Of a stretch of DNA of 36,874 nt, positions 12,269-27,853 are shown piece by piece (position 1 is the first letter of the stretch; every line of letters begins with the position of its first letter). Below the pieces are notes generated by a model that was given only the letters and a program-made list of their open reading frames with translations, had not been told where the DNA came from and ran no database searches. The position numbers and the translations under genes were made by a program. The DNA lies in the IMG/VR virus record IMGVR_UViG_3300028392_000153, positions 1 to 36,874 of that record. One strand, 5' to 3'. Source of the stretch: a virus.

Positions 12269-13051
12269 ATGCGTACACTTGTCAGAAGCGTTGGCCGTGC
12301 CAGTATCGGTGGAGAACCGCTCCCTAGTTGTTTCAAAGCGTTCGAATCCAATAAGATTATCATACGGCGCTCTGAAGTTTCGATGTTTGCAGCAGCACCA
12401 GGAGTGGGCAAGTCAACCCTGGCATTAGCATTAGCTTTGAAGATGAGAGTGCCAACACTTTATATCTCAGCAGATACTAACGCACACACTATGGCTATGC
12501 GATTAGCCTCAATGATTTCAGGTAAGTCACAAGGTGATGTAGAGTCACTCATGAATACTGACCATGGTTGGACTAAGGCCACACTTGCCCGAGGCGCACA
12601 CATTGTATGGTCATTTGAATCAGCACCATCATTGCAAGACATTGATGAAGAAGTACAAGCATTTGAAGAACTATGGGGTTGTCCTCCAGTTCTTATTGTA
12701 GTAGATAACCTAATGGACGTAGCCACCGATGGTGGTGAAGAATTCGCATCTATGCGTGCGATTATGAAGGAGTTGAAATACCTTGCTAGAGCGACCAATG
12801 CAGCAGTTGTTGTCTTACATCACACATCGGAGGCTATCCAAGGCTCTCCGTGCCAACCTAGAAGTGCTATCCAAGGAAAGGTTGCACAACTTCCCGCACT
12901 CATCTGTACGCTTGGAGTTGTCGGGACAAGTATGGGAGTTGCGCCTGTCAAGAACAGATATGGTCGTGCCGATGCAGGCGGAGGACTAATGACTTGGGTT
13001 GCATTCAACCCTGAGTATATGTTCATCGATGATATTCCAGAGAACGCATGA
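12269..13051 (+). CDS. RecA/DnaB-like ATPase (replicative helicase or RepA-like)
   Basis: 260 residues. Walker A APGVGKST (about 43-50), a LYISADT strand, Walker B VLIVVDN (141-147) and a VVLHHTSE sensor-like motif (181-188) define a RecA-fold ATPase of the DnaB/RepA class. It lacks a DnaB N-terminal domain and is shorter than typical DnaB (about 450). It is therefore probably a single-domain hexameric helicase or loader, like the RepA-type ATPases of plasmids and phages. GGAAGGG lies eight bases upstream of ATG. It precedes the resolvase and primase genes. Confidence 0.8.
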   Translation: MRTLVRSVGRASIGGEPLPSCFKAFESNKIIIRRSEVSMFAAAPGVGKSTLALALALKMRVPTLYISADTNAHTMAMRLASMISGKSQGDVESLMNTDHGWTKATLARGAHIVWSFESAPSLQDIDEEVQAFEELWGCPPVLIVVDNLMDVATDGGEEFASMRAIMKELKYLARATNAAVVVLHHTSEAIQGSPCQPRSAIQGKVAQLPALICTLGVVGTSMGVAPVKNRYGRADAGGGLMTWVAFNPEYMFIDDIPENA

Positions 13052-13620
13052 CACAGTTTCCTAATTGGTTTGCTGGTCAACAGTATAACTTCGAGGCCCA
13101 GCTTGCTCACCTTAATGGCAAACCTGACCTTAGGTTCCTACAGATTGGTGCATACACAGGTGATGCAAGTGTTTGGTTATGTGAGAATGTTTTAACACAT
13201 CCAACGTGTGTGCTAATTGATGTTGATACATGGGCTGGTTCAGATGAACGCGAGCATCAGGCTATCGATTTCGAGAGAGTGCTGAAGTATTATGAAGCAC
13301 GCATCACTAAGTATCAAAAGGTTATTAGACTGAAGATGACTAGTGACAAGTACTTCACTGGAGAAATTGCAGGGAAGTTTGACTTCATCTACATTGATGG
13401 AGACCATACATCTGCTCAGGTAGAACGAGATGCATATAGTGCATGGAAGTTATTGAAGGACGGTGGCATACTTGCATTTGATGATTATCTGTGGGGCCAG
13501 GACTTACCACCCGACACTACACCCAAGCCAGCGATTGATAATTTCTTACGCACACATACTGGTGAATACACTCAGCTAGTCGATAGCTATCAAGTTTGGA
13601 TAAAGAAGAATGACAACTAG
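13048..13620 (+). CDS. Class I SAM-dependent methyltransferase
   Basis: 190 residues. Motif I FLQIGAYTGDAS (30-41), the acidic strand end LIDVDTW (56-62), and FDFIYIDGDHTSAQV (111-125) followed by LLKDGGILAFDDY are the pattern of the Methyltransf_24 type class I methyltransferase. Substrate is unknown; members act on sugars, small molecules or proteins, and no DNA-methylase (D/N)PPY motif is seen. Its ATG overlaps the helicase stop (ATGA), so it is translated with the replication genes. Confidence 0.8.
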   Translation: MTQFPNWFAGQQYNFEAQLAHLNGKPDLRFLQIGAYTGDASVWLCENVLTHPTCVLIDVDTWAGSDEREHQAIDFERVLKYYEARITKYQKVIRLKMTSDKYFTGEIAGKFDFIYIDGDHTSAQVERDAYSAWKLLKDGGILAFDDYLWGQDLPPDTTPKPAIDNFLRTHTGEYTQLVDSYQVWIKKNDN

Positions 13621-15148: not shown

Positions 15149-15511
15149 ATGGCAGATTACACAGCACCTGGCGAATCAAGGTTTTACGGTGACGCAAGTA
15201 CGCATGGAGAACCAGCAGTTAGTACTAGAGATTCGGATTTCGCATGCGATGTAGCAGCTACCTTTCAAGAACTAGAAAGCTTATTGCTTACTAAGCATAA
15301 TGATTATGGTCCAACTAACATTTCGCGTAGCCCAGGTGGGCCAGTTAATGGCCTACGTGTGCGCATGTGGGATAAGTTTGCACGTATTAATAACCTAGTA
15401 GATAATGGCAAAGACCCACAGCACGAAAGCCTTGAGGATTCTTTCAAGGACATGGCAAACTACGCAATCATCGGGTTGCTAGTACTGAGAGGTAAGTGGC
15501 CTAATGACTAA
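15149..15511 (+). CDS. DUF1599 (nucleotide modification associated domain 1) protein
   Basis: 120 residues. KHNDYGPTNI, then GLRVRMWDKFARINNLVDNG and ESLEDSFKDMANYAIIGLLV are the signature of DUF1599/Nmad1, an all-alpha MazG-like fold found in phages. Such proteins occur near DNA or nucleotide modification enzymes, and some family annotations propose a nucleotide-pool role. No companion hypermodification genes are visible here. Starts six bases after the zinc-finger gene. Confidence 0.8.
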   Translation: MADYTAPGESRFYGDASTHGEPAVSTRDSDFACDVAATFQELESLLLTKHNDYGPTNISRSPGGPVNGLRVRMWDKFARINNLVDNGKDPQHESLEDSFKDMANYAIIGLLVLRGKWPND

Positions 15512-15917: not shown

Positions 15918-16611
15918 ACCCTGGGAATACATAGTAGTACATGTAGCCAGCGAGTATCACAGAAAATTTAAGTTTCTTGAACTTGAAGATATACGTCAGA
16001 CACTATATGAATGGTTTCCTGGACATATAAATAAGTTTATGGAATGGAATGAAATGGGTGGTAAGGAAGCAAAGAACCTTATCTACCGCAGCCTTCGTAA
16101 CTATGCACTAGATTATTGTCAGTATCAAAAGGCCAAGTCTCTTGGCTATGATGTATCTGATTTATATTACTATGACCCAGTAATTGTAGAAGCCTTACTT
16201 CCTGCTGTGTTGCGTGATGAGTGGGGAGTAACTCATAAACTTAATCTTGGTAGGCCCGGACGTCCCAGCGCACCTAGTGAGGGTGGGAATCTGCAAGCTA
16301 TGATGATAGAAGTAGACTCCGCATACCATAAGTTAAGTACTGAAGACAAACAGTTACTCTTCTTACGATATGCAGAGTCTATGGAGTATGCTGACATTGC
16401 CAAAGAGCTTGAGCTCATTAGCCCTGACGCTACTCGCATGCGTACAACGAGAGTAATACGCAAACTTGTTAAGCTAATGGGTGGTATGAAACCATGGATT
16501 GACTTAGACGCCGCCGATAAAACCAGCGATGAACCAAGTGAATTGGTAGATGCCAACGACACCGAAGAACAATATACTAGCGCCCATGAGGGCGAAGAAG
16601 AAGTTCTTTAG
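15895..16611 (+). CDS. Sigma-70-like factor / HTH regulator
   Basis: About 238 residues; ATG 15895 or 15898 is preferred to ATG 15883 because DWKLIEPWEYIVVHVA looks like the natural N-terminus and the overlap is shorter. It has an N-terminal helical region (KFLELEDIRQTLYEWFP) like sigma region 2 and a C-terminal region-4-like HTH (LSTEDKQLLFLRYAESMEYA, then DIAKEL, TRVIRKLVKLMG). An acidic tail follows. It probably redirects host RNA polymerase to phage promoters. It ends one base before the convergent minus-strand gene. Confidence 0.65.
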   Translation: MMDWKLIEPWEYIVVHVASEYHRKFKFLELEDIRQTLYEWFPGHINKFMEWNEMGGKEAKNLIYRSLRNYALDYCQYQKAKSLGYDVSDLYYYDPVIVEALLPAVLRDEWGVTHKLNLGRPGRPSAPSEGGNLQAMMIEVDSAYHKLSTEDKQLLFLRYAESMEYADIAKELELISPDATRMRTTRVIRKLVKLMGGMKPWIDLDAADKTSDEPSELVDANDTEEQYTSAHEGEEEVL

Positions 16612-16612
16612 A

Positions 16613-16810
16613 CTATTCATCTATAAGTTCTTCATCAAACTCATACTCTTCTAGTGGTTCATCATCTAGTTCATCTTCCCATAGGTGTTCAAAAAGAACA
16701 TCCATGTTATCCGAGATACAATCATCCTCAGTTTCATAATCTTCCCAGTTTAATACATACTTCTTAACTATAGTAGTTACTTCTTCTGCTGTCAAGTCTT
16801 GCATTCCCAT
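16613..16810 (-). CDS. Small acidic hypothetical protein
   Basis: 65 residues from ATG 16810 (MGMQDLTAEEVTTIVKKYVL), chosen because CAGGAGGATAGC sits directly upstream. The C-terminus is extremely acidic (EDELDDEPLEEYEFDEELID), resembling DNA-mimic or charge-masking phage peptides, though nothing proves that. Last gene of the minus-strand operon, abutting the convergent sigma-like gene. Confidence 0.65.
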   Translation of the reverse strand: MGMQDLTAEEVTTIVKKYVLNWEDYETEDDCISDNMDVLFEHLWEDELDDEPLEEYEFDEELIDE

Positions 16811-16811
16811 G

Positions 16812-16988
16812 CTATCCTCCTGTTGAATAGAATCCTGTACCATTAAACTTAACTGGTGTCGCATGGATTATTCTGCGCATCAGTCGTGTGCAATACTGAC
16901 AAGTAGGACAGTTGTCTCTGTCGTCTATACTGCGATAGTGTTCCTCTGATGTATCACAATCGTCACACTTGTACTCATAGTTGGGCAT
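16812..16988 (-). CDS. FmdB-type zinc-ribbon protein
   Basis: 58 residues from ATG 16988 (MPNYEYKCDDCDTSEEHYRS), preceded by an overlapping stop (TAATG). Two CxxC pairs (CDDC, CPTC plus CTRL-region Cys) and the 'YEYkC..C' opening are the FmdB putative regulatory/zinc-ribbon family. ATPVKFNGTGFYSTGG matches its usual tail. Probably a nucleic-acid or protein binding adaptor; the family's function is poorly known. Confidence 0.82.
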   Translation of the reverse strand: MPNYEYKCDDCDTSEEHYRSIDDRDNCPTCQYCTRLMRRIIHATPVKFNGTGFYSTGG

Positions 16989-17149
16989 TAGCGTGACCAT
17001 TGTCCCGTGTCTCGTTGTTCCTGCATGTTAATGTTACCAGTGAATGGTGGTGGTGGTTCTGAGTATTGCCACGGGTCTGACTCAAGAAGTTCCTGTACAT
17101 GTGCATGCCATTCTTGCTTCTTGATTAGTTCGTGTAAGAACTCGGTCAT
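16988..17149 (-). CDS. Small hypothetical protein, 53 residues
   Basis: Begins MTEFLHELIKKQEWHAHVQE; ends RDTGQWSR. It starts inside the stop of the upstream zinc protein (ATGA) and its stop overlaps the next ATG (TAATG), so three genes are coupled. GGGGTGAC lies upstream as ribosome site. A Pro-run (EPPPP) separates a helical N-terminus from a polar tail. Its opening resembles the protein at 18489-18821 (MPEFLHEVVRKRE), a probable relative. Confidence 0.65.
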   Translation of the reverse strand: MTEFLHELIKKQEWHAHVQELLESDPWQYSEPPPPFTGNINMQEQRDTGQWSR

Positions 17150-17466
17150 AAGTCACCCCAACATATCTCACATACAAGCCAGTCACCCATTGTCATTAGA
17201 GTTTCTGTCTCATACATTGCCTCGCACCTTGTGCATGCCGACATATCTTTATCAGGTTCTAAGTCCACAGGTGTAGGTGCAGTAGCTAGTGTGCCACACT
17301 CAGCACATTCCATATCTAAGAAGTACATGTCAATCTCACCGTCGTCGTCGAACTTGCATTTAACATTCCATATCTCACACCCACATGGGCACACAGCGGT
17401 TGGCTTACCGCGTATGTCCATAGCCTGAGTGTAATCAGGCTTCATCTCCGTAATATGTTTAGCCAT
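17146..17466 (-). CDS. Zinc-ribbon protein
   Basis: 106 residues with three CxxC-type knuckles: VCPCGCEIW (about 25-33), ECAECGT (53-59) and CTRCEA/CEICWGD (78-84, 99-105). Acidic overall. The CAACGAGAGGATA leader precedes the ATG. It may bind RNA polymerase, nucleic acid or a host protein. No specific family recognised. Confidence 0.7.
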   Translation of the reverse strand: MAKHITEMKPDYTQAMDIRGKPTAVCPCGCEIWNVKCKFDDDGEIDMYFLDMECAECGTLATAPTPVDLEPDKDMSACTRCEAMYETETLMTMGDWLVCEICWGDL

Positions 17467-17487
17467 TAGTTATCCTCTCGTTGTTCA

Positions 17488-17877
17488 TTAGTGCCAACTA
17501 TGCTTCTTAAAGAATTGCCATGCTTCACATGGCGTACCATATCTGTAGTAAATATAAGCCAAGCCTCGGTCTATCTGAAGCGTGGCTGGTGTAGTAGGGT
17601 CAAGCCCCAGTAACTGTGGTATACCGCCAGCGTTCTTCCCCATAACTCTGACGCTATTGTAGGCTCTAGGATTCCATGCGGATTCCTTGCCCCACAGATT
17701 ACTAAGGCATGACCATTGTTCTTCTTGCCATGTACTTAACTGGTCTCTTGCATATGCCTTGCTGTCTGCCTTACTCCAAGAAGCCTGCATAGTATATGTT
17801 TTAGTTGGTGCTTCTGATGTAGGTGTGAACAAGAATATGCTGACCATTACGAACAGCAAGAAGAATATTGATTTCAT
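17488..17877 (-). CDS. Secreted transglycosylase (actinobacterial lysozyme-like family)
   Basis: 129 residues. Signal peptide: MKSIFFLLFVMVSIFLFTPT then SEA. The mature part ends in a lysozyme-like domain of the aggregation-promoting-factor/transglycosylase type: WSCLSNLWGKESAWNPRAYN (catalytic Glu in KESAWN), AGGIPQLLG, and TPATLQIDRGLAYIYYRYGT followed by PCEAWQFF, with a conserved Cys pair. Exported by Sec and active on peptidoglycan glycan strands. It is far from the lysis cassette and in the minus operon with WhiB, so an early or entry/host-modulation role is more likely than final lysis. Confidence 0.8.
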   Translation of the reverse strand: MKSIFFLLFVMVSIFLFTPTSEAPTKTYTMQASWSKADSKAYARDQLSTWQEEQWSCLSNLWGKESAWNPRAYNSVRVMGKNAGGIPQLLGLDPTTPATLQIDRGLAYIYYRYGTPCEAWQFFKKHSWH

Positions 17878-18218
17878 TTAACGAGACTCCTAATGTTACG
17901 GGCTACGACCATACGATACTTCCTGTCTGTCGAAGCCTTGGTTGTATCGGCAAGTGCAATGCGCTCACCTGGTAGTAAGCCACCCCATATGCCGTAGTCT
18001 AGGTTCTCTTCCTTCATACCTTCGGATAGACAATTGGTACGAATCGGACATTTAGTACATAGTTCCATGGCTATGAGCATGTTGGCCCGTCGCTCCTCGA
18101 ACTTCTTGTTAGGGCTAGTGCTACCTAAACGCTTCTCGAACAAGTCACCCGAGTCCTCGAACCATAGGTCGGGGTTAGGGTGTGTCATACATATCCCTTG
18201 CATGCTACTCATTTCCAT
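17874..18218 (-). CDS. whiB: WhiB-family Fe-S transcription regulator
   Basis: 114 residues from ATG 18218 (MEMSSMQ). A slightly later ATG at 18212 would give an ATGA overlap; the upstream in-frame ATG is discounted. Four cluster cysteines are Cys10, and Cys54/57/63 in LCTKCPIRTNC. The GIWGG turn (76-80) binding sigma-A region 4 is present, with a basic C-terminal tail. WhiB proteins bind a 4Fe-4S cluster and act with host sigma-A, so the phage could reprogramme host transcription; WhiB-like phage proteins have been linked to superinfection control in mycobacteriophage. Overlaps the transglycosylase start (ATGA). Confidence 0.88.
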   Translation of the reverse strand: MEMSSMQGICMTHPNPDLWFEDSGDLFEKRLGSTSPNKKFEERRANMLIAMELCTKCPIRTNCLSEGMKEENLDYGIWGGLLPGERIALADTTKASTDRKYRMVVARNIRSLVK

Positions 18219-18349
18219 GGTGAATGCACCACCTCGTTGTCCCAGCCACATGTCGAGCATGTGAACCAGTATGTTGAACCGTCATCTTCCCAGTCCTCGT
18301 TCTCTGCTTCGCAGTTCTCTGCCTCACATATAACTACATACTTAGCCAT
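18209..18349 (-). CDS. Small zinc-ribbon protein, 46 residues
   Basis: Begins MAKYVVICEAENCEAENEDW and ends CGWDNEVVHSPWK. CEAENC and CSTCGWD form a zinc knuckle. The stop overlaps the WhiB start (ten bases), and the start overlaps the upstream stop (TAATG), so it is coupled to WhiB. No family known. Confidence 0.7.
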   Translation of the reverse strand: MAKYVVICEAENCEAENEDWEDDGSTYWFTCSTCGWDNEVVHSPWK

Positions 18350-18492
18350 TAGTTGTGCACTCCATACTTCCAGCAGATATCATAGACAGCTCTGCTTAGT
18401 TCTAATCTTAATTCTTTAATCTTATCCTCACTCATGTTGGCTACATCTTTATCATAGATTGTAGTCTGCCATAGTACAATGCGTTCTGTCAT
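18349..18492 (-). CDS. Small hypothetical protein, 47 residues
   Basis: Begins MTERIVLWQTTIYDKDVANM and ends CWKYGVHN. GAGAGGATTAGT lies just upstream as ribosome site. The start overlaps the upstream stop (ATGA). A central amphipathic helix (MSEDKIKELRLELSRAVYDI) is the main feature. Confidence 0.62.
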   Translation of the reverse strand: MTERIVLWQTTIYDKDVANMSEDKIKELRLELSRAVYDICWKYGVHN

Positions 18493-18821
18493 ACTAATCC
18501 TCTCGTTTCTTGTGCGTGTCTTGACTCACAGTTAATGCAAGCGTATCTGAACCTAGACATGCTTGAATCTGACACATCTAGTATCCACCTATGCTCATCA
18601 CAACTTATGTCTGAGAATACATTTCTCATAACATTCCATGATGGTTCATCAACCCAGTATCTAATGTTGGACATGAATCTTTCGTCGCGCACTAGTATAC
18701 CAGCTATTGCCGTGTCTGCATATACATTACCATAGACCCAAACATATTGTCCACTAAGTCTTGATTGATTTGATGAACTGCGCTCGCGCTTGCGAACAAC
18801 TTCATGTAAGAATTCTGGCAT
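18489..18821 (-). CDS. Hypothetical protein
   Basis: About 110 residues from ATG 18821 (MPEFLHEVVRKRERSSSNQS), preferred to ATG 18866 because AAAGGATATACC lies directly upstream. C-terminal cysteines (ISCDEHRW, YACINCESRHAQE) suggest a zinc knuckle. Middle part (YVWVYGNVYADTAIAGILV) is beta-like. The stop overlaps the next start (ATGA). Opening resembles the 16988-17149 protein. Confidence 0.62.
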   Translation of the reverse strand: MPEFLHEVVRKRERSSSNQSRLSGQYVWVYGNVYADTAIAGILVRDERFMSNIRYWVDEPSWNVMRNVFSDISCDEHRWILDVSDSSMSRFRYACINCESRHAQETRGLV

Positions 18822-18881
18822 GGTATATCCTTTCTTTGATAATAAAGATGAGCAGTTTGATGACATGCTCAGGTCAGTTGG

Positions 18882-19151
18882 TTACGCCTCGAATACAGTC
18901 GAGACATACCCGTCAAGGCGAGCATGGGTTGTGATGAGACCCTTGCCACCAGTCAAGTGCTTGTATGTACCGTCGCCCAATGATACCCACATTGACTTAG
19001 CCTTAAAGCGATTCTGTGTAGGCAGAGCCTTCACAATTGTACCCCGTGTAGGGTAATCTGATGATGTGTCTACTGACATAGCAAGGTATGCTACTTCGCT
19101 TGCTAGTGCAGAGATTTCATCTGCGATATTCTGAATTGCTGTTGCTGACAT
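18882..19151 (-). CDS. Hypothetical protein
   Basis: 89 residues. An N-terminal helical stretch (AIQNIADEISALASEVAYLA) precedes a beta-rich SH3-like segment (RGTIVKALPTQNRFKAKSMW then VSLGDGTYKHL). The CGAGAGGC leader precedes the ATG. Could be a small nucleic-acid or protein-binding module; no family recognised. Confidence 0.6.
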   Translation of the reverse strand: MSATAIQNIADEISALASEVAYLAMSVDTSSDYPTRGTIVKALPTQNRFKAKSMWVSLGDGTYKHLTGGKGLITTHARLDGYVSTVFEA

Positions 19152-19183
19152 GATTGTATTGCCTCTCGTTAGTTGGTGTTACC

Positions 19184-19204
19184 CCACATAGACTATCCAT
19201 GTGG
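19184..19204. repeat. Short inverted repeat between minus genes
   Basis: CCACAT (19184-19189) and ATGTGG (19199-19204) form a six-base stem in the 61-base spacer after the glutamine amidotransferase. No T-tract follows on the minus strand, so termination is uncertain; RNA processing or a weak operator are alternatives. Confidence 0.35.
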
Positions 19205-19212
19205 AATTATAG

Positions 19213-20061
19213 TTAGCTGAACAGGTCATAGTCCTTCTTGCTTGACCATTGTCTATCGGGTGTGTAGCATAGGCAGTCTATGATACTGGTATCACAGTCG
19301 AAGCATATCTCACACATGTTGCAGTAGTATGGATTCTCATGCATATCTACGAGTGTCTCGCAGTTAGGGCAGAGGTCTATTACTTCTTCCCCTTCTTCTT
19401 GATAGTAGTGCTTGAGTGCATAGTCATAGGCTAGTTGCTCTGCCTTGTCTAAGTCCCTTGCTGGTGCTTTCCATACTGTAGAGGGAGTGGTATATGTGGT
19501 GCGCTTATGCGACTGATTACTCCACCATATACCAGCATTATCCCATGTACCTAAGTTCTCATTGACTAGGTAGATTTGGTGCTTGGCACTAGGGTCTAAG
19601 GTAAGGATACATATCTTGCTACCGCTTGCCCACTTGCTAACCATAGTCCATACTGTGTCATTGTCAAGTACCGACACGCCACCCATAAGTGGCAAGGTAT
19701 CCTCTGCGAATACTCTGGTGTCGCTACGCTTGTCTGACTTCTCTATCGTTACATCTAGTATACCATTGTGTGCTAGGTATGTCAAGTCTGAATCACCAAC
19801 CTTAAAGGGGTGGCAATTAGCCTCGTTCTTGACACCATGTGTAGCGTATCGTGCGTGCCACATGGCGTAGCCGTTAGGATATTGCTTACGCAATTCCAAG
19901 AATCTTGCAATAGATTTTTTAGCAGACATGCTACGCTCTGATATGATAGTATCTCCAGCGATAATGGCAAAGCCATATCCGTGAGGATTACTACACGCAC
20001 CATTTTGTAGGTCTGTCTTAGTGGGTGTGCTGTCAGGCTCACACACTACAAGTATACACAT
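19213..20061 (-). CDS. Class II glutamine amidotransferase (Ntn hydrolase)
   Basis: 282 residues. Cys2 becomes the N-terminal nucleophile after Met removal (MCILVVCE). HGYGFA (27-32), WHARYATHG (68-76, substrate-binding Arg), NCHPF (82-86) and LAHNGIL (96-102) are the class II GATase motifs that hydrolyse glutamine and release ammonia. A C-terminal zinc ribbon (CPNC, CNMCEICFDC, CLC) is an extra module. GAGGTGATGT precedes ATG and overlaps the end of the upstream amidoligase gene, eight bases away, so the two are co-translated. Likely supplies ammonia or acts on the same substrate as that ligase. Confidence 0.85.
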   Translation of the reverse strand: MCILVVCEPDSTPTKTDLQNGACSNPHGYGFAIIAGDTIISERSMSAKKSIARFLELRKQYPNGYAMWHARYATHGVKNEANCHPFKVGDSDLTYLAHNGILDVTIEKSDKRSDTRVFAEDTLPLMGGVSVLDNDTVWTMVSKWASGSKICILTLDPSAKHQIYLVNENLGTWDNAGIWWSNQSHKRTTYTTPSTVWKAPARDLDKAEQLAYDYALKHYYQEEGEEVIDLCPNCETLVDMHENPYYCNMCEICFDCDTSIIDCLCYTPDRQWSSKKDYDLFS

Positions 20062-20069
20062 ACATCACC

Positions 20070-21395
20070 TCATGCATTCTCTAGTGTTGGGTTGGTTATA
20101 TCTACGCCCGATACTTTATAGAGTCGGGAGTACAGGTCGGGATACAGTCCGTTGTTGTCTCGTACATAATCAACGAACCATGTCCAGTCTAGCGCACCTA
20201 GCTTGACTTCATCAAGTCGTAGTGTCCTAGTGTATTCTATCATGGCTTGCGCTAAGTCAAGTGCCGATAGAATAGTGCTGGTATTCATAGTGCCACGAAA
20301 GAACCTAAGTTCTAGCGTGTCTCGATTCTGCGTATTGACGGCAGAATATCTTTCCGTATTGTTACGGCTTGGGTCTCCAACCTTATGCTTAAAGGACTTT
20401 ACTGGTTGGTCATACTGGTTAAAGGTATAGACATCATTAAACCTAGCATAGTCGGACTTGCGCCCACCAAACTTCATCATATATTCTGCATTAGAATACA
20501 CGAATGATATGAAGCGGTGCATGTGCGCACCACTTGAGAAGCCAGCGCGAGAGACATGGATATGTATGCCACAGGTCTTAGTATCCCATGACCTAGCACC
20601 ATAGTCTAGGCGTAGCGTGTTGATTATATTCCATAGTGTATCACTATGCTCCCTATATTGCAAGTGAGTATGTGGTTGTGTCACTATCTCAAAGCCGTCA
20701 TATCCGTCACGACCTATACTGCCGTCATGCTTGATGATACCGACTTTATTTTCTAGTAAAGCGTTGGTTGCGTATTCGGCAGCCCCGTCTAGGCTACCAC
20801 CACGAATCTGTGTCTCCAACTCTAACCCCATGTAGAGCCCACTCTTGGACTCGCCATGGAATACTAGCGGTGGCTTGCAGTTGTATTCGTGTATAACCTT
20901 ACGGCAATTACAGTCACGACCAACGATAGATGGAGTGCCACCCTGCGTATTATCACAGTTGTAACACTCATCACCTTCACGATTATACTGGTCACAATCG
21001 TCACAGTACCATGCGTGACGACTAGTGCAGTCATCACACCAAGTATTATCCCCTACGGAATAGTAATCGTTGCGGTCACTATAACTAGTGCCACAAGGCT
21101 CACAATAGAATGTGTTATTCTCGTAGCAATACTCGCACCATGACTCATTATCAACGAAGTAATCGTCGCCTGAGAAGGCACTATTACAACGCTCACAATT
21201 CTTACCACAGTCCGAGCAATAGTAACTACTGCCGTCATTAATCGAGTCGTCTATAGATGATAGGTCGCTACAAGATTCGCACCATATAGTGCAATTCTCA
21301 CAAGCAATAGAGCCGTCATTAAAGGCGCGCTCTGTCTCATCATCTATGATTTGGTCGCATAGACTACATATAATATCTTCTACTTCTTCTGCCAT
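20070..21395 (-). CDS. Zinc-knuckle amidoligase-like protein
   Basis: 441 residues. Residues 1-170 hold about ten CxxC-type pairs (CSLC, CENC, CESC, CSDC, CERC, CEYC, CEPC, CDDC, CYNC, CNC), each probably binding zinc. Residues ~187-385 match the glutamine-synthetase-fold amidoligase family: GLELE (190-194, metal Glu), KHDGSI (222-227), GFEIVT (234-239), CGIHIHVSR (275-283) and RYSAVNTQNRDTLELRFFRG (349-368). Known members form amide bonds by ATP-dependent ligation. TTGACA-N17-TATACT (21430-21458) drives it and GGAAGGGGGTGAG is its ribosome site. It lies beside a class II glutamine amidotransferase, an association noted for this family. Substrate is unknown. Confidence 0.8.
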   Translation of the reverse strand: MAEEVEDIICSLCDQIIDDETERAFNDGSIACENCTIWCESCSDLSSIDDSINDGSSYYCSDCGKNCERCNSAFSGDDYFVDNESWCEYCYENNTFYCEPCGTSYSDRNDYYSVGDNTWCDDCTSRHAWYCDDCDQYNREGDECYNCDNTQGGTPSIVGRDCNCRKVIHEYNCKPPLVFHGESKSGLYMGLELETQIRGGSLDGAAEYATNALLENKVGIIKHDGSIGRDGYDGFEIVTQPHTHLQYREHSDTLWNIINTLRLDYGARSWDTKTCGIHIHVSRAGFSSGAHMHRFISFVYSNAEYMMKFGGRKSDYARFNDVYTFNQYDQPVKSFKHKVGDPSRNNTERYSAVNTQNRDTLELRFFRGTMNTSTILSALDLAQAMIEYTRTLRLDEVKLGALDWTWFVDYVRDNNGLYPDLYSRLYKVSGVDITNPTLENA

Positions 21396-21429
21396 ATCTA
21401 CTCACCCCCTTCCTGTATGTTGTAGGTGT

Positions 21430-21458
21430 AGTATAGCATAATCTTATTTAGTTGTCAA
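21430..21458 (-). promoter_or_regulatory. Strong minus-strand promoter P1 (amidoligase operon)
   Basis: On the minus strand, TTGACA (21453-21458), a 17-base spacer ending TGC, and TATACT (21430-21435). The start of transcription is about 28 bases before the amidoligase ATG. The -35 overlaps the end of the upstream small gene (21448). Confidence 0.8.
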
Positions 21459-21597
21459 ATTGTCCATGCTTGCGCAGTTGCAATTTGAGGTACTCGACCT
21501 TGCGAGTAAGTCTAGCGTTGGCTAGGGTGGTAGTCACTATTAGTGTCATAGACACCGATAGGGCTATGATTACTGCAAGCATATCTGTATTAGTCAT
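21448..21597 (-). CDS. Small membrane protein, 49 residues
   Basis: Begins MTNTDMLAVIIALSVSMTLI and ends LKLQLRKHGQFDN. One hydrophobic helix (about residues 5-27) is followed by a basic amphipathic coil (RLTRKVEYLKLQLRKH). The start overlaps the upstream stop (ATGA). Its 3' end contains the amidoligase -35 box. Type Nin membrane orientation likely; function unknown. Confidence 0.68.
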   Translation of the reverse strand: MTNTDMLAVIIALSVSMTLIVTTTLANARLTRKVEYLKLQLRKHGQFDN

Positions 21598-21749
21598 GCT
21601 TCCTGTAATCCTTTAAGGCGTGTCCGCTTGGTAGCGGTCTGCCATGGTGTAGCGAGTAGGTTCGCTTGGAATAGTGCCTTGGCACTCTCCCTAGATTCGA
21701 GCCACTCACTAGCACGCAATTCCGCAGTAATGCGTTGCGTTGCCGTCAT
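21594..21749 (-). CDS. Small hypothetical protein, 51 residues
   Basis: Starts at ATG 21749 (MTATQRITAELRASEWLESR), not the upstream in-frame ATG, which lies before the promoter at 21778. CAACGAGAGGATA is its ribosome leader. Entirely helical and basic (AKALFQANLLATPWQTATKR). May bind nucleic acid; no family recognised. Confidence 0.65.
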   Translation of the reverse strand: MTATQRITAELRASEWLESRESAKALFQANLLATPWQTATKRTRLKGLQEA

Positions 21750-21777
21750 GTGCCATATCCTCTCGTTGATATGCCAT

Positions 21778-21806
21778 AGTATAGCATAGACTTGACACCT
21801 TGTCAA
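21778..21806 (-). promoter_or_regulatory. Strong minus-strand promoter P2 with palindromic -35
   Basis: TTGACA (21801-21806), a 17-base spacer ending TGC, and TATACT (21778-21783) on the minus strand. The -35 lies inside the perfect palindrome TTGACA-CCT-TGTCAA (21792-21806, plus-strand reading), a possible operator. Drives the 51-residue and membrane genes. Confidence 0.8.
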
Positions 21807-21811
21807 ATCGT

Positions 21812-21856
21812 GCCACGCTAGGTCGTGAACCTATGTAGCCTATCGCTAGGCGTGGC
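21812..21856. repeat. Hairpin between the 21862 gene and promoter P2
   Basis: GCCACGCTAG (21812-21821) pairs with CTAG-G-CGTGGC (21846-21856) with one bulged base. It lies just after the end of the minus-strand gene at 21862 and before P2, so it may end the upstream transcript despite lacking a T-run, or insulate P2. Confidence 0.5.
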
Positions 21857-21861
21857 GTATC

Positions 21862-22137
21862 CTACTTATTGTGGATATTAAGGTTAAGGGTAGTGGTTTC
21901 GGCGGTTGCCAACTTAGCCACTAGTGCTAGTGCTGTTGCTTCATCAAGGGTAGGTAGTTCGCGTGTCACCTTGGGGCGATTACTTGTCACCTTACCATTA
22001 CGAGTGCGCTTAAAGGCGCGCCCGTTAGGGGTGTCGTGTAGTCTCCACCCTGTAGAGCCTAGTCTGCGACTAGTTACTATAGGGTGACTAGGTGTCACTA
22101 CGATACTACCTAACCCCCCATAAGGGTTATAGGTCAT
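21862..22137 (-). CDS. Hypothetical basic protein
   Basis: 91 residues from ATG 22137 (MTYNPYGGLGSIVVTPSHPI), with GGAAGGAT upstream; the ATG at 22152 lies inside the leader hairpin. Basic middle (LGSTGWRLHDTPNGRAFKRT, RNGKVTSNRPKVTREL) could bind DNA or RNA. C-terminal helix ALALVAKLATAETTTL. First gene below the tandem promoter array, so probably very early and highly expressed. No family recognised. Confidence 0.65.
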   Translation of the reverse strand: MTYNPYGGLGSIVVTPSHPIVTSRRLGSTGWRLHDTPNGRAFKRTRNGKVTSNRPKVTRELPTLDEATALALVAKLATAETTTLNLNIHNK

Positions 22138-22151
22138 GTCGTATCCTTCCA

Positions 22152-22168
22152 CCTTGCACCATGCAAGG
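22152..22168 (-). promoter_or_regulatory. 5' UTR stem-loop before the 22137 gene
   Basis: CCTTGCA-CCA-TGCAAGG (plus-strand reading) is a seven-base perfect stem with a three-base loop, immediately 5' of the GGAAGGAT ribosome site on the minus-strand message. It could stabilise the RNA or serve as a protein-binding site. Confidence 0.5.
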
Positions 22169-22196
22169 CTAGTGCGCTAATAGGTAGCGAGCCTAT

Positions 22197-22225
22197 AAGA
22201 TACCATAGTATCTAGCGCGTGTCAA
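22197..22225 (-). promoter_or_regulatory. Minus-strand promoter P3
   Basis: TTGACA (22220-22225), 17-base spacer, TATCTT (22197-22202). It lies nearest to the 22137 gene, with a leader of about 53 bases that contains the stem-loop. Confidence 0.7.
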
Positions 22226-22279
22226 GTTGTAATAAAGTGCGGTAGTGTTACCATAGGCGACCTACTGTTACTAGTAACT

Positions 22280-22309
22280 AGTCTAGCACACTCTATATTC
22301 ACTTGTCAA
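22280..22309 (-). promoter_or_regulatory. Minus-strand promoter P4
   Basis: TTGACA (22304-22309), 18-base spacer ending TGC, TAGACT (22280-22285). The perfect palindrome GTTACTAGTAAC (22267-22278) lies just beyond the -10, at the start site, and could be an operator. Confidence 0.65.
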
Positions 22310-22338
22310 GTCTAACAGTACCAACCCCGTTAGCGGTT

Positions 22339-22356
22339 GCACCCTTGGGGGGGTGC
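22339..22356. repeat. GC-rich hairpin between promoters P4 and P5
   Basis: GCACCC (22339-22344) pairs with GGGTGC (22351-22356), loop TTGGGG. It is in the early transcribed region of P5 on the minus strand. Terminator-like without a T-run. Confidence 0.45.
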
Positions 22357-22366
22357 TAGTGGGGTA

Positions 22367-22395
22367 AGTGTAGCACACTTGCCCTACCTTGTCAA
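22367..22395 (-). promoter_or_regulatory. Minus-strand promoter P5
   Basis: TTGACA (22390-22395), a 17-base spacer ending TGC, and TACACT (22367-22372): near-consensus with extended -10. Confidence 0.75.
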
Positions 22396-22451
22396 GTCTA
22401 GCGTGTCGGGCGTGTCGTTAAACTTGCCTAGTGCTTAACTTGATAGGGGGT

Positions 22452-22480
22452 ACTTTACCCTACCTTGCCACGCTTGTCAA
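22452..22480 (-). promoter_or_regulatory. Minus-strand promoter P6 (most upstream)
   Basis: TTGACA (22475-22480), 17-base spacer, TAAAGT (22452-22457). No gene lies between P6 and P3, so P6, P5 and P4 either stack on the same message or make short noncoding RNAs. Confidence 0.6.
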
Positions 22481-23025
22481 GAGGACAATTCGGACATGTC
22501 GGACATAGGGTGTGTGAGATAGGTCACACCCCATACATAGGGACAATAGGTACATATCCGACATAGTGGGCATCATGGTACAAGGTATATTAAAATATAC
22601 TAAGCCCCCCAAAACGGACATTTAAGACATGGCATGGATAGTCGATATGTCCATATATCTATCTACCGCTATATCTCTTTATTTATTTGTCGATAAATCT
22701 ATAAATCTATATGTCGATAAATCGATAATGACCCCACATGCTTAAAAATGCGCCCGAGGGGCGTATATAGTATCCCATAATAAATTTCTGTTATATTATA
22801 TAGGGGGCAATATATAGACCTGACCAGGCCTTTTAAAAATACTTTAGTCAGATGTGTTCGTTTTAGCACTTTGAACAGGTTATCTATTATGTAATGTATT
22901 ACATACGGAGTCGCTCCGTTAAGACTCCGCGACTCCTATATATTATATATATAATTATATATAATGGGAGAGTTATATCGCTATACAGGGACCGTTATAC
23001 AAGCGATTAACAAGGGGATTAACTG
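22481..23025. other. Noncoding divergent control region, candidate origin or packaging site
   Basis: No convincing gene in 545 bases. It contains CGGACAT three times (22491, 22500, 22615) and CCGACAT once (22558). There is a GGGTGTG/CACACCC hairpin (22508-22531), and a CGCCC/GGGCG hairpin at 22751-22763. Two 11-base repeats GTCGATAAATC lie 24 bases apart (22689, 22713) with a relative at 22641. Further on are a perfect 8-base palindrome around 22888-22905, an 8-base inverted repeat GGAGTCGC/GCGACTCC (22907-22936) and an AT-only tract (about 22937-22964). It lies between minus-strand early genes and the terminase. No clear plus-strand promoter was found. Confidence 0.55.
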
Positions 23026-24894
23026 ATGGGTAGAAAGCCAGGAAAACAAGACATTCCTAAAGGCGAGGCCCAGGAGCGCGTCCTGATGGCACTAGCCCAG
23101 GGAGCGACTGTGATAGCCGCTATGGCGACCGTGGGGCGCAATGACGTAACTTTCCGCCAGTGGTGCGCCTCAGATGTATCCTTCAAGGAACGTTCCGACA
23201 AAGCTCGCCTAGAAGGTAAAGGCATCAAGGCTGACTTAGCAGATTTAAAGGATATCGACTTCGTCTCTTTTTGCGAGCAGTTCCTAGACTCCAAGCTCTT
23301 TCCCCACCAGCTTAACTGGCTGGACATGATGGAGGGCCGCGAACCTAGCTGGATGCCAGCTGGTATAACTTACGAGCCAGGTGAACCTGATAGAGTACTT
23401 ATCAACGTACCACCTGAGCATGCTAAGTCAACCACCATTACCACAAACTATGTTACATACAAAATTGTGACTGACCCAAACACACGAGTTATTATTGTCT
23501 CTAAAACACAGGGTATGGCACGCAAGTTTCTTGGGGCAATCAAGACAAGACTTTCACATCCAGCATATATTAAGTTGCAGACGGCCTTCGGTCCTAACGG
23601 CGGATACAAGGCCGATGCAACACAATGGTCTGCTGATATGATTTACCTAGGTACGGGACGTGACTCAGGCGAGAAGGACCCAACCGTACAAGCCCTTGGT
23701 ATGGGCTCACAGATTTACGGTGCTCGTGCTGACCTGATTATCGTTGATGACGCCGTGATGGGAGCCAATGCCCATGAATGGGAAAAACAAATTGAATGGC
23801 TCCAAAAGGAAGTTATCACACGCCTGGGGCGGCACGGAAAACTAATAATTATAGGAACCCGTGTCGCGCCCGTGGACCTATACAAAATGCTCCGTGACCC
23901 AAAACAATGGTCTGGTGGAGTGGCACCTTTTACATATTGTGCAATGCCAGCAGTTTTAGAATTTGATGAGAAGCCAGACAAGTGGAAAACCCTATGGCCA
24001 GAATCTGACCAACAGGAAAATGCCAAAGATGACACACTACCCAATGGGAACTTTCCCAAATGGGATGGACCCTCGCTCTCTAAGCGTCGCTCTCAGGTCT
24101 CTGCCGCTGTATGGGCTATGGTCTACCAGCAAGAAGATGTCACCGAAGATTCAATCTTTTCCCCTACCTGCGTTGCAGGAAGCATCAATGGAATGCGAAA
24201 GCGTGGTCCATTAAAACCTGGTACTCCTGGACACCCTAGAGCAACCGATGGTACATACACTGTTATCGGACTAGACCCTGCTATGTCAGGAGCAACTGGT
24301 GCTGTTGTAGTTACATACAACAAAGCTGATGGTAAGATTTATGTTCTTGACTGCGTAAATATGACCGAGCCTTCACCAGATAAAATTCAACATTTAATTG
24401 AAGACTGGGTTGAAAAGTACAAGCCCCAAGAACTACGTATTGAAATTAATGCTCACCAAAAAGCTTACGCTCTGGATGAGAATTTAAGAAACTTTTTAGC
24501 CTCTTATGGCTGCCAGCTGAATTCACACTTTACTGGTAAAAATAAATGGGACACTTCTTTTGGTGTAGCATCTATGGCTATGCTGTTTGGCAATACCCGC
24601 GATGGCCGTTTCCAAGATAATAACATTATGGAGATACCAAGTAACGATGGCTCAGAGGGAATCAAGACCCTTGTACAGCAATTGATTACTTGGAAACCTG
24701 ATACAAAAAACCCCACAGACACTGTGATGGCTCTCTGGTTTGCAATCATCCGAGTGCGCGAGCTAATGCAAAATACATCAAGAGTAGGTCAGTACCAATC
24801 AAACCGATGGGCAACAAGACAACAGATGTCATCACGCGGTTCAATTAACCTCGACGAAGCCTTTGCTGAGCAATGGTCTCAAAACTACGGATAG
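23026..24894 (+). CDS. terL: Terminase large subunit with N-terminal small-subunit-like HTH
   Basis: 622 residues. Residues ~14-62 (GEAQERVLMALAQGATVIAA, then VTFRQWCASDVSFKERSDKA) look like the HTH of a small terminase subunit, which recognises phage DNA. The ATPase has a Walker A-like VPPEHAKSTT (128-137), Walker B LIIVDDA (237-243) and GTRV coupling motif (277-280). The RNase H-like nuclease has Asp417 (IGLDPAMSG), Glu473 (RIEINA) and Asp565 (NPTDTVMAL). It packages DNA into the prohead through the portal. No separate small subunit gene is seen beside it. AAGGGGATTAACTG precedes ATG. Confidence 0.9.
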   Translation: MGRKPGKQDIPKGEAQERVLMALAQGATVIAAMATVGRNDVTFRQWCASDVSFKERSDKARLEGKGIKADLADLKDIDFVSFCEQFLDSKLFPHQLNWLDMMEGREPSWMPAGITYEPGEPDRVLINVPPEHAKSTTITTNYVTYKIVTDPNTRVIIVSKTQGMARKFLGAIKTRLSHPAYIKLQTAFGPNGGYKADATQWSADMIYLGTGRDSGEKDPTVQALGMGSQIYGARADLIIVDDAVMGANAHEWEKQIEWLQKEVITRLGRHGKLIIIGTRVAPVDLYKMLRDPKQWSGGVAPFTYCAMPAVLEFDEKPDKWKTLWPESDQQENAKDDTLPNGNFPKWDGPSLSKRRSQVSAAVWAMVYQQEDVTEDSIFSPTCVAGSINGMRKRGPLKPGTPGHPRATDGTYTVIGLDPAMSGATGAVVVTYNKADGKIYVLDCVNMTEPSPDKIQHLIEDWVEKYKPQELRIEINAHQKAYALDENLRNFLASYGCQLNSHFTGKNKWDTSFGVASMAMLFGNTRDGRFQDNNIMEIPSNDGSEGIKTLVQQLITWKPDTKNPTDTVMALWFAIIRVRELMQNTSRVGQYQSNRWATRQQMSSRGSINLDEAFAEQWSQNYG

Positions 24895-27283: not shown

Positions 27284-27853
27284 ATGACAACGTTGGCTGC
27301 TATCCAGGGTAATGGATGGGTTGTAATGGGTTGCGATTCACGTAGCTCTGATGAAGAGGGCCGTCCAATGCAGATGGCCACACACAAAATTGTTGAAAAT
27401 AATGGAGCACTTATTGCTGGCTCTGGTGCAGGTAGAGGTTCAAACATATTACAGTTTGGTTGGAAAGCCCCAAAGCCTACAGCATTTGAAAACTTAGATA
27501 TTTTTATGACACAAAAATTTATACCATCAATGCGAAAAGCATTCATTGATGCGGGATATGACATGAAAGAAGACGGGGATGCAGCATCGCATGATTCGCA
27601 ATTTCTTATCAGCATTCGTGGAACTATTTATCCTATCTTTGAGGATTACTCTTGGGACCGCGATATACGTGGTATCTATTACTCTGGCTCTGGCAGCCCG
27701 ATTGCTCTTGGAGCTATGGCGGCCCTTGGTATTGATGATGTACAAAATGTTACTCAAGCTGAAAGGCTAGTACGCAAAGCAATCGAGATTGCAACAGAAT
27801 GGGACATTTATACAAGTGGCCCAATCATTACTAAAACACAATTTATTAAGTAG
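27284..27853 (+). CDS. Proteasome beta-like Ntn hydrolase, candidate prohead protease
   Basis: 189 residues. Removing Met would expose Thr1 of TTLAAIQGNGWVVMGCDSRS, with Asp17 and Arg19 in the proteasome positions. Lys34 (ATHKI) corresponds to Lys33, one residue shifted. GSGS (135-138) matches the Ser129 loop, and Asp174 with Ser178-Gly179 (EWDIYTSGP) match Asp166/Ser169. The fold is thus a catalytically complete 20S beta/HslV-like subunit. No other protease is seen between portal and capsid, so it may mature the capsid. Good ribosome site AGGTAGGGGACA. HslV versus 20S beta origin is open. Confidence 0.82.
   Translation: MTTLAAIQGNGWVVMGCDSRSSDEEGRPMQMATHKIVENNGALIAGSGAGRGSNILQFGWKAPKPTAFENLDIFMTQKFIPSMRKAFIDAGYDMKEDGDAASHDSQFLISIRGTIYPIFEDYSWDRDIRGIYYSGSGSPIALGAMAALGIDDVQNVTQAERLVRKAIEIATEWDIYTSGPIITKTQFIK

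What the first reader, a model, noticed from the sequence alone, without database searches (positions are those of the whole stretch)
19213..21395. Zinc-armed amidoligase paired with a class II glutamine amidotransferase in a phage
The two genes are adjacent, eight bases apart, and driven by a near-consensus promoter. The amidoligase has a complete GLELE/KHDGSI/CGIHIHVSR/NTQNRDTLELRFFRG motif set after about ten zinc knuckles; the amidotransferase has Cys2, HGYGFA, WHARYATHG and LAHNG plus its own C-terminal zinc ribbon. Amidoligases and GAT-II enzymes are known to co-occur and are proposed to build peptide or amide tags. Fusion of both to zinc modules suggests a shared target, such as host RNA polymerase, a ribosome or a cell-wall precursor. 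This looks like an uncharacterised conjugation system.
Basis: partly seen in the sequence, partly recalled or inferred. Interest (0 to 1): 0.85.

Follow-up and report, generated by a model that had tools for sequence, protein, structure and literature searches.

The report
Phage amidoligase–glutaminase pair in actinophages
A phage of freshwater actinobacteria carries two adjacent enzymes that look like a glutamine-powered machine for adding amide groups; the pair is of a known but apparently untested kind, and here it travels as an optional block with a third, unknown small protein.

Summary
ORF 20070-21395(-) is an Amidoligase_2 protein: a glutamine-synthetase-like core behind ten CxxC motifs, probably five LIM-like zinc sites. 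ORF 19213-20061(-), 8 bp downstream, is a class II glutamine amidotransferase with Cys2 and a C-terminal zinc ribbon. Active-site residues are invariant in relatives; a near-consensus promoter precedes the pair. The pairing itself is not new: it is in print for LUZ24-type and OM43 phages (and cited for Marvin and phiEco32); I saw no biochemical test. New here: (1) in this phage group the pair is all-or-none (present in 6 of 31 complete intervals, absent from 2 cultured relatives); (2) an 89-aa gene of no known family follows it (77 of 77 loci searched from that gene's side with room); (3) Nocardia genomes carry tandem copies, each amidoligase diverging with its own amidotransferase. Best reading: a two-subunit, glutamine-dependent amidation enzyme made to modify an unknown host target. 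Tag conjugation and a 'shared zinc-defined target' are not supported: zinc modules vary or vanish in relatives, and none of 56 distinct 89-aa proteins ends in a Pup-like acid. Pairing is strong but not absolute: 10 of 63 genome loci show an amidoligase without GAT-II.

The parts
20070..21395 (-). Amidoligase (ALI): LIM-like zinc array (residues about 10-147, 10 CxxC) plus glutamine-synthetase-like ligase core (about 183-430)
   Evidence: Pfam PF12224 above cut-off; AF2 pLDDT 83, VIA Z 12.1 to glutamine synthetase over 187 residues, 3.2 A; E192 E194 K222 D224 E236 H278 R283 R349 N354 E362 R364 invariant in 42 sequences
19213..20061 (-). Class II glutamine amidotransferase (Ntn hydrolase, Cys2) with C-terminal zinc ribbon C231 C234 C250 C253
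   Evidence: phrog_25883 1.1e-37; AF2 pLDDT 81.6 (C-terminal part beyond residue 180 modelled at lower confidence); VIA Z 13.9 to EgtC and 13.7 to GlmS; C2 R71 T74 G76 N99 G100 D114 and the four ribbon Cys invariant in 38 sequences
18882..19151 (-). 89-aa protein of no known family, linked third gene of the block in this phage group
   Evidence: GAT-II upstream in 77 of 77 loci with 300 bp or more, ALI in 69 of 69 with 1300 bp or more; no Pfam or PHROG hit
21862..22152 (-). 96-aa protein upstream of the pair, linked to the block
   Evidence: 6 of 6 pair-bearing and 0 of 27 pairless relatives; 56 of 62 GAT-II loci with room
21430..21458 (-). Near-consensus sigma-70-type promoter TTGACA-17-TATACT upstream of ALI
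17874..18260 (-). WhiB-like regulator, backbone gene at one edge of the variable interval
   Evidence: PF02467 above cut-off; present with or without the pair, 31 of 31 loci
23026..24894 (+). Large terminase, backbone gene at the other edge of the variable interval
   Evidence: phrog_38; 79% identical to that of the cultured Planktophila phages E7 and F5

Best explanation
The two proteins are the synthetase and glutaminase halves of one glutamine-dependent amidation enzyme. The GAT-II subunit uses Cys2 to split glutamine and release ammonia; the amidoligase activates a carboxylate of its target with ATP, as glutamine synthetase does, and joins the ammonia to give an amide. The LIM-like zinc array is the docking part for target or partner. 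The phage makes the pair from strong promoters of its own, beside the WhiB regulator, as an optional host-takeover or competitor-exclusion module; the target (peptidoglycan precursor or a host protein) is unknown and the 89-aa protein is a lineage-specific third component. Shown: folds, conserved active sites, close genetic pairing and co-divergence, all-or-none inheritance in this phage group. Inferred: catalysis, subunit contact, ammonia transfer, early timing, target and benefit.
For: Folds and conserved active sites. ALI next to GAT-II in 80 of 80 GAT-II viral loci kept (of 90 found). In Nocardia, 40 of 118 genomes have ALI; 39 of these 40 and 0 of the other 78 have a strong GAT-II (E below 1e-40) (Fisher p 1.6e-30 if genomes are taken as independent, which they are not). 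In tandem pairs each ALI has diverged with its own GAT-II: distance correlation 0.867, best of 500 partner swaps 0.456. Sporadic presence on phages (6 of 31), on mycobacterial plasmids and, in part of the Nocardia loci, near DprA-like, ParB-like and excisionase-like genes.
Against: No activity is known to me for this family. GAT-II matches a gamma-glutamyl hydrolase (EgtC) as well as an ammonia-donating glutaminase (GlmS): Z 13.9 and 13.7, tied. No complex could be modelled. Pairing has exceptions: 10 of 63 genome loci have ALI without a detected GAT-II: seven Pseudonocardia loci with ALI inside very long frames, two Nocardia neocaledoniensis contigs (L170, L172) where tblastn also finds no GAT-II in the stretch held, and L179 with a split ALI; genome G043 has ALI only; the Bifidobacterium phage GAT-II (L112) has no detected ALI and the Clostridioides phage ALI (L116) no detected GAT-II. 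Co-divergence can also follow from joint inheritance, though the swap controls for species history.
Confidence: 0.55

Rival explanations
1. Ligase plus gamma-glutamyl hydrolase. The amidoligase joins glutamate or a peptide to an amine, and the GAT-II protein later cuts a gamma-glutamyl amide, as EgtA/EgtC and PuuA/PuuD do (pathway logic recalled), so the pair makes or trims a gamma-glutamyl compound.
For: EgtC is the top structural match, tied with GlmS; YbdK, recalled as a carboxylate-amine ligase, is among the best matches of the amidoligase; phiEco32 and LUZ24 clusters add a COOH-NH2 ligase, a RimK-like ATP-grasp and a gamma-glutamyl cyclotransferase; amidoligases without a GAT-II exist.
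Against: No such extra enzyme in the 42 window ORFs scanned; co-divergence of the two proteins suggests contact rather than two separate steps.
Confidence: 0.22
2. Peptide or protein conjugation: the amidoligase links a tag to a target protein, as PafA does with Pup, with the 89-aa protein as tag or adaptor.
For: Foldseek matches to Dop and PafA (E 1.5e-4 to 1.2e-3); the 89-aa gene is closely linked.
Against: The same list is led by YbdK, GmaS, glutamine synthetase and glutamate-cysteine ligase; none of 56 distinct 89-aa proteins ends in an acidic or amide residue (A 27, P 26, C 2, L 1); the 89-aa profile finds nothing in loci L109-L179, the Mycobacterium, Nocardia and other relatives held then; a glutaminase is not needed for Pup-type ligation (recalled).
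Confidence: 0.1
3. Nitrogen-metabolism helper gene: the pair moves nitrogen into amino acids for the host, as proposed for a Planctomycetes phage.
For: Proposed in PMC10945688 for a phage with GAT, amidoligase, glutathione synthase and cyclotransferase genes (passages).
Against: Hosts generally have such enzymes already (recalled, not tested here); a zinc docking array, tandem co-diverged pairs and sporadic mobile-element distribution suggest a specific target (inference).
Confidence: 0.08

Closest known systems
ALI + GAT-II pair of Mycobacterium cluster S phages (Marvin, MosMoris gp108/gp109)
   Same: Same gene order and strand, both proteins homologous (MosMoris 31.5% and 35.4% identity); GAT-II zinc ribbon kept
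   Different: Amidoligase has 4 rather than 10 CxxC before the core; no 89-aa gene detected; pair lies within 3.5 kb of the genome end
phiEco32 / LUZ24 amidoligase clusters
   Same: Amidoligase directly followed by a GAT-II-type gene, as annotated
   Different: Extra COOH-NH2 ligase, RimK-like ATP-grasp and gamma-glutamyl cyclotransferase; neither amidoligase is found by the window's profile and only the LUZ24 GAT-II is (3e-8)
OM43 phage pair (MEP401, MEP402)
   Same: Adjacent amidoligase and GATase, in print as accessory genes
   Different: In MEP402, 2 CxxC only before the core and no aligned GAT-II ribbon cysteines
Tandem pairs of Nocardia genomes; single pairs on mycobacterial plasmids
   Same: In 95 genome amidoligases C120 and C123 are in all and the active-site set in 92-95; plasmid copies seen only as tblastn hits
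   Different: Two or three pairs in tandem in 39 loci, the second often without the GAT-II ribbon; no 89-aa gene detected
Glutamine synthetase / YbdK / Pup ligase superfamily
   Same: Core fold
   Different: 9-16% identity; substrate unknown; N-terminal zinc array

Membership tests
Amidoligase_2 (PF12224) | Profile match above curated cut-off | tested here: met
   30.8 bits against 22
Amidoligase_2 (PF12224) | Glutamine-synthetase-like fold | tested here: met
   VIA Z 12.1, 187 residues, 3.2 A to GS; Z 11.5, 214 residues, 3.8 A to YbdK (1r8g_B)
Amidoligase_2 (PF12224) | Conserved metal/ATP residues (Glu pair, Glu, His, Arg, Glu-x-Arg) | tested here: met
   Invariant in 42 phage sequences and in 92-95 of 95 genome ALI; the residue-by-residue role by analogy to GS is recalled, not computed
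Amidoligase_2 (PF12224) | ATP-dependent amide formation | not testable with these tools
   Needs assay
Class II glutamine amidotransferases | N-terminal nucleophile Cys after Met, R-x-x-T-x-G, N-G, D | tested here: met
   M1 C2 R71 T74 G76 N99 G100 D114 invariant in 38; C2, R71 and T74 in 94 of 96 genome GAT-II, the other two gapped there
Class II glutamine amidotransferases | Ntn hydrolase fold | tested here: met
   Z 13.9 EgtC (171 residues, 4.2 A), 13.7 GlmS (174 residues, 4.0 A)
Pfam GATase_6 / GATase_4 curated families | Score above curated cut-off | tested here: not met
   25.6 against 27 and 22.5 against 23; so filed in the superfamily, not in these Pfam families
phiEco32/LUZ24-type amidoligase module | COOH-NH2 ligase, RimK-like ATP-grasp and gamma-glutamyl cyclotransferase beside the pair | tested here: not met
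   None among 42 window ORFs scanned with Pfam and/or PHROGs, which include all 18 of 200 aa or more; 83 of the 125 listed ORFs were not scanned, and the window (36.9 kb) is shorter than E7 and F5 (38.9-39.1 kb), so a missing end is possible
Pup-type conjugation system (PafA) | Small tag with C-terminal Glu/Gln | tested here: not met
   0 of 56 distinct 89-aa proteins end in Glu, Gln, Asp or Asn
Known anti-phage defence systems (PADLOC) | Model match | tested here: inconclusive
   No match for the pair; one marginal hit (E 0.0099) for the 89-aa protein

The most novel reading that the evidence does not exclude
The block is a three-component protein-modifying system: amidoligase and glutaminase act on a host protein chosen by the LIM-like array, and the 89-aa protein is its acceptor, adaptor or immunity partner; related pairs are used by phages and plasmid-like elements of actinobacteria against the host or each other.
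Probability: 0.12. Interest if true: 0.85.

Novelty: new variant of a known kind. Interest (0 to 1): 0.5.

Why it matters
Phage amidoligase pairs have been listed for years with only guesses about function in the papers I saw. Here are handles that make it testable: cultured near relatives that lack the block, a linked third gene that may point to the substrate or partner, and a laboratory phage of Mycobacterium smegmatis with the same pair. Tandem, co-diverged pairs in Nocardia suggest that partner specificity matters, which argues for a real two-subunit enzyme.

Tried and rejected
Rejected: one shared zinc-defined target for both proteins (ribbon and array vary independently). Rejected: the 89-aa protein as a Pup-like tag by C-terminal acid; its only PDB sequence matches are weak ones, mostly designed coiled coils against its N-terminal part. 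Led nowhere: Rfam and tRNA scans of the window (none), PADLOC and NCBIfam, terminators near the operon (2 found, 3.5 expected). Families not seen in the VIA lists are not excluded. PF12224 was searched in E7 and F5 with no match, but that search rang in no control genome; the absence rests on the family profiles (89-aa gene), which find the pair in 6 relatives run the same way. The A2 profile hits all 118 Nocardia genomes, most of them weakly (probably GlmS, PurF and the like); only matches below 1e-40 were counted as the phage-type GAT-II, a threshold I set after seeing the list. Two small neighbours (49 and 51 aa) are linked in part only (4 of 6 pair loci, 0 of 27 pairless).

Full report
WHAT IS THERE. 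The window is a 36,874-base virus record with terminase, portal, tail, helicase and WhiB genes and a weak sigma-70 region 4 match below its cut-off. Its terminase is 79% identical to that of Planktophila phages E7 and F5, isolated on 'Ca. Planktophila' of the freshwater 'Ca. Nanopelagicales' (PMC10202952, part 1 of 2 of the text read), and many window genes have homologues in them in matching order. The host is therefore most likely a freshwater actinobacterium (inference).

THE PAIR. ORF 20070-21395(-) has 441 aa. Residues 234-385 match Amidoligase_2 above its cut-off. The AlphaFold2 model (pLDDT 83) aligns over 183-413 to glutamine synthetase (Z 12.1, 187 residues, 3.2 A) and over 184-433 to YbdK (Z 11.5); Foldseek also lists gamma-glutamylmethylamide synthetase, plant glutamate-cysteine ligase, Dop and PafA, and LIM-domain proteins at lower rank. 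The weak sequence hits in the PDB set are nearly all LIM proteins on the N-terminal part (22 hits, best E 0.009). The ten CxxC motifs can pair as five Cys4 sites (inferred). ORF 19213-20061(-) has 282 aa; its model (pLDDT 81.6) aligns to EgtC (Z 13.9) and GlmS (Z 13.7) over residues 2-189; the part beyond, with the zinc ribbon, is modelled with lower confidence. In 42 amidoligases and 38 amidotransferases of this group the expected active-site residues are invariant.

CO-OCCURRENCE. In the 116 loci held at that point (with duplicates, since two searches found the same contigs), 109 had both ORFs next to each other, 100 of them 8-15 bp apart. The seven others: L017, L025, L027 carry an amidoligase cut by the contig end; L111 is adjacent in the record but my ORF began earlier; L112 showed GAT-II only; L113 showed GAT-II, with an amidoligase annotated upstream; L116 showed amidoligase only. 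All 80 GAT-II viral loci kept (of 90) have the amidoligase. These loci were found with window peptides, so they are close relatives; but the pair is also adjacent in Mycobacterium, Methylophilales and Acinetobacter phages and a spring-water podovirus.

ALL-OR-NONE BLOCK. All 31 have WhiB. Six have amidoligase, GAT-II and the 89-aa gene together; 25 have none of the three; none has only part. Of 16 more with 1.6-4.7 kb upstream, one has both enzymes and 15 none, but these may be cut short. Two of the six (L262, L264) are near-copies of the window phage. E7 and F5 have none. On a terminase tree of 62 sequences, 29 of them added because they bear the pair, at least three changes of state are needed.

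THE THIRD GENE. The 89-aa protein (18882-19151) follows GAT-II in 72 of 75 loci with room (missing in L106-L108). Searched from its own side, 80 of 193 matches were kept; GAT-II lies upstream in 77 of 77 with 300 bp or more, and the amidoligase in 69 of 69 with 1300 bp or more. It has no Pfam or PHROG match and an invariant core with a variable N-terminal part (A3). Its profile finds nothing in loci L109-L179. A 96-aa gene upstream is linked too, less tightly.

CELLULAR RELATIVES. One genome scan gave 63 loci, mostly Nocardia; all 63 have an amidoligase match and 53 a GAT-II. The ten without are L122, L164, L169, L173, L174, L177, L178 (Pseudonocardia, amidoligase inside very long open frames), L170 and L172 (Nocardia neocaledoniensis contigs) and L179 (split amidoligase); tblastn with three GAT-II proteins finds none there either. 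Fifty loci gave 91 clean pairs; 39 loci, all Nocardia by title, have two or three pairs in tandem. Among tandem loci the nearest neighbour always shares position: 77 of 77 for the amidoligase, 76 of 76 for GAT-II; swapping partners within loci drops the distance correlation from 0.867 to at most 0.456 in 500 trials. Among 55 such genome loci, families conserved within the 6-kb flanks include a DprA-like protein (17 loci), a DUF2637/excisionase-like protein (12), a DUF3085 protein (12) and a ParB-like protein (10); one locus has genes that by eye resemble IstA/IstB transposition genes. In 118 Nocardia genomes the amidoligase is in 40; a strong GAT-II is in 39 of these and in none of the other 78 (G043 is the exception). 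Three mycobacterial plasmids carry both and a fourth a partial GAT-II.

REGULATION. A TTGACA-17-TATACT site ends 34 bp before the amidoligase start. Scanning 16400-23200 gave 33 promoter-like sites against 15.0 (sd 4.1) in shuffles, with strong minus-strand ones at 21806 and at 22225, 22309, 22395 and 22480. I read this as an early-type control region (inference).

WHAT IS IN PRINT. PMC10580990 (passages) reports amidoligase and GATase genes in MEP401, MEP402 and over 30 metagenomic genomes, and cites Iyer et al. 2009 for a cell-wall, superinfection role in phiEco32 and the 2012 Marvin paper. PMC3517423 and PMC3890496 (passages) list both in LUZ24-like phages. PMC11318856 and PMC10945688 (passages) repeat the superinfection idea or propose nitrogen metabolism. 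In PMC7824862, PMC12419801 and PMC4431377 the passages seen bear on this only by citing Iyer 2009. Iyer 2009 and the Marvin paper are not held; I know them only as cited and by recall. Searches listed no biochemical test of such a pair that I could see in titles, abstract starts or the passages read; I did not search for the 89-aa gene in print.

VERDICT. Real, intact and conserved; a known kind of phage gene pair in a zinc-rich actinobacterial form with a linked extra gene. The likely chemistry is glutamine-dependent amide formation on an unknown target; conjugation remains possible but unsupported.

Noticed in passing
window 22197-22480 (-): Four near-consensus promoter-like sites at about 85-bp steps on the minus strand, upstream of the 96-aa gene; a possible early promoter array.
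   Followed up: partly
L122 1-12681, L177 1-13770 (Pseudonocardia); also L164, L169, L173, L174: Very long open frames (over 4,200 aa within the stretch) with amidoligase domains, two each in L122 and L177 by tblastn, no GAT-II, and no other Pfam hit in the two scanned.
   Followed up: partly
window 27284-27853 (+): Match to the proteasome subunit family just above its cut-off (24.9 against 22.4 bits) between portal and later head-region genes, perhaps an HslV-like prohead protease.
   Followed up: no
L260 1-385 (-), L261 24788-25225 (+): In cultured phages E7 and F5 the same WhiB-terminase interval holds other small genes, including one that by eye resembles a staphylococcal-nuclease-like protein.
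   Followed up: no
window 17488-17877 (-): Transglycosylase-like protein with an aggregation-promoting-factor C-terminal domain (PHROGs, NCBIfam), conserved with or without the pair (6 of 6 and 27 of 27).
   Followed up: partly
window 13048-13620 (+) and 15149-15511 (+): A Methyltransf_24 protein and a DUF1599 'nucleotide modification associated' protein, both above cut-off.
   Followed up: no
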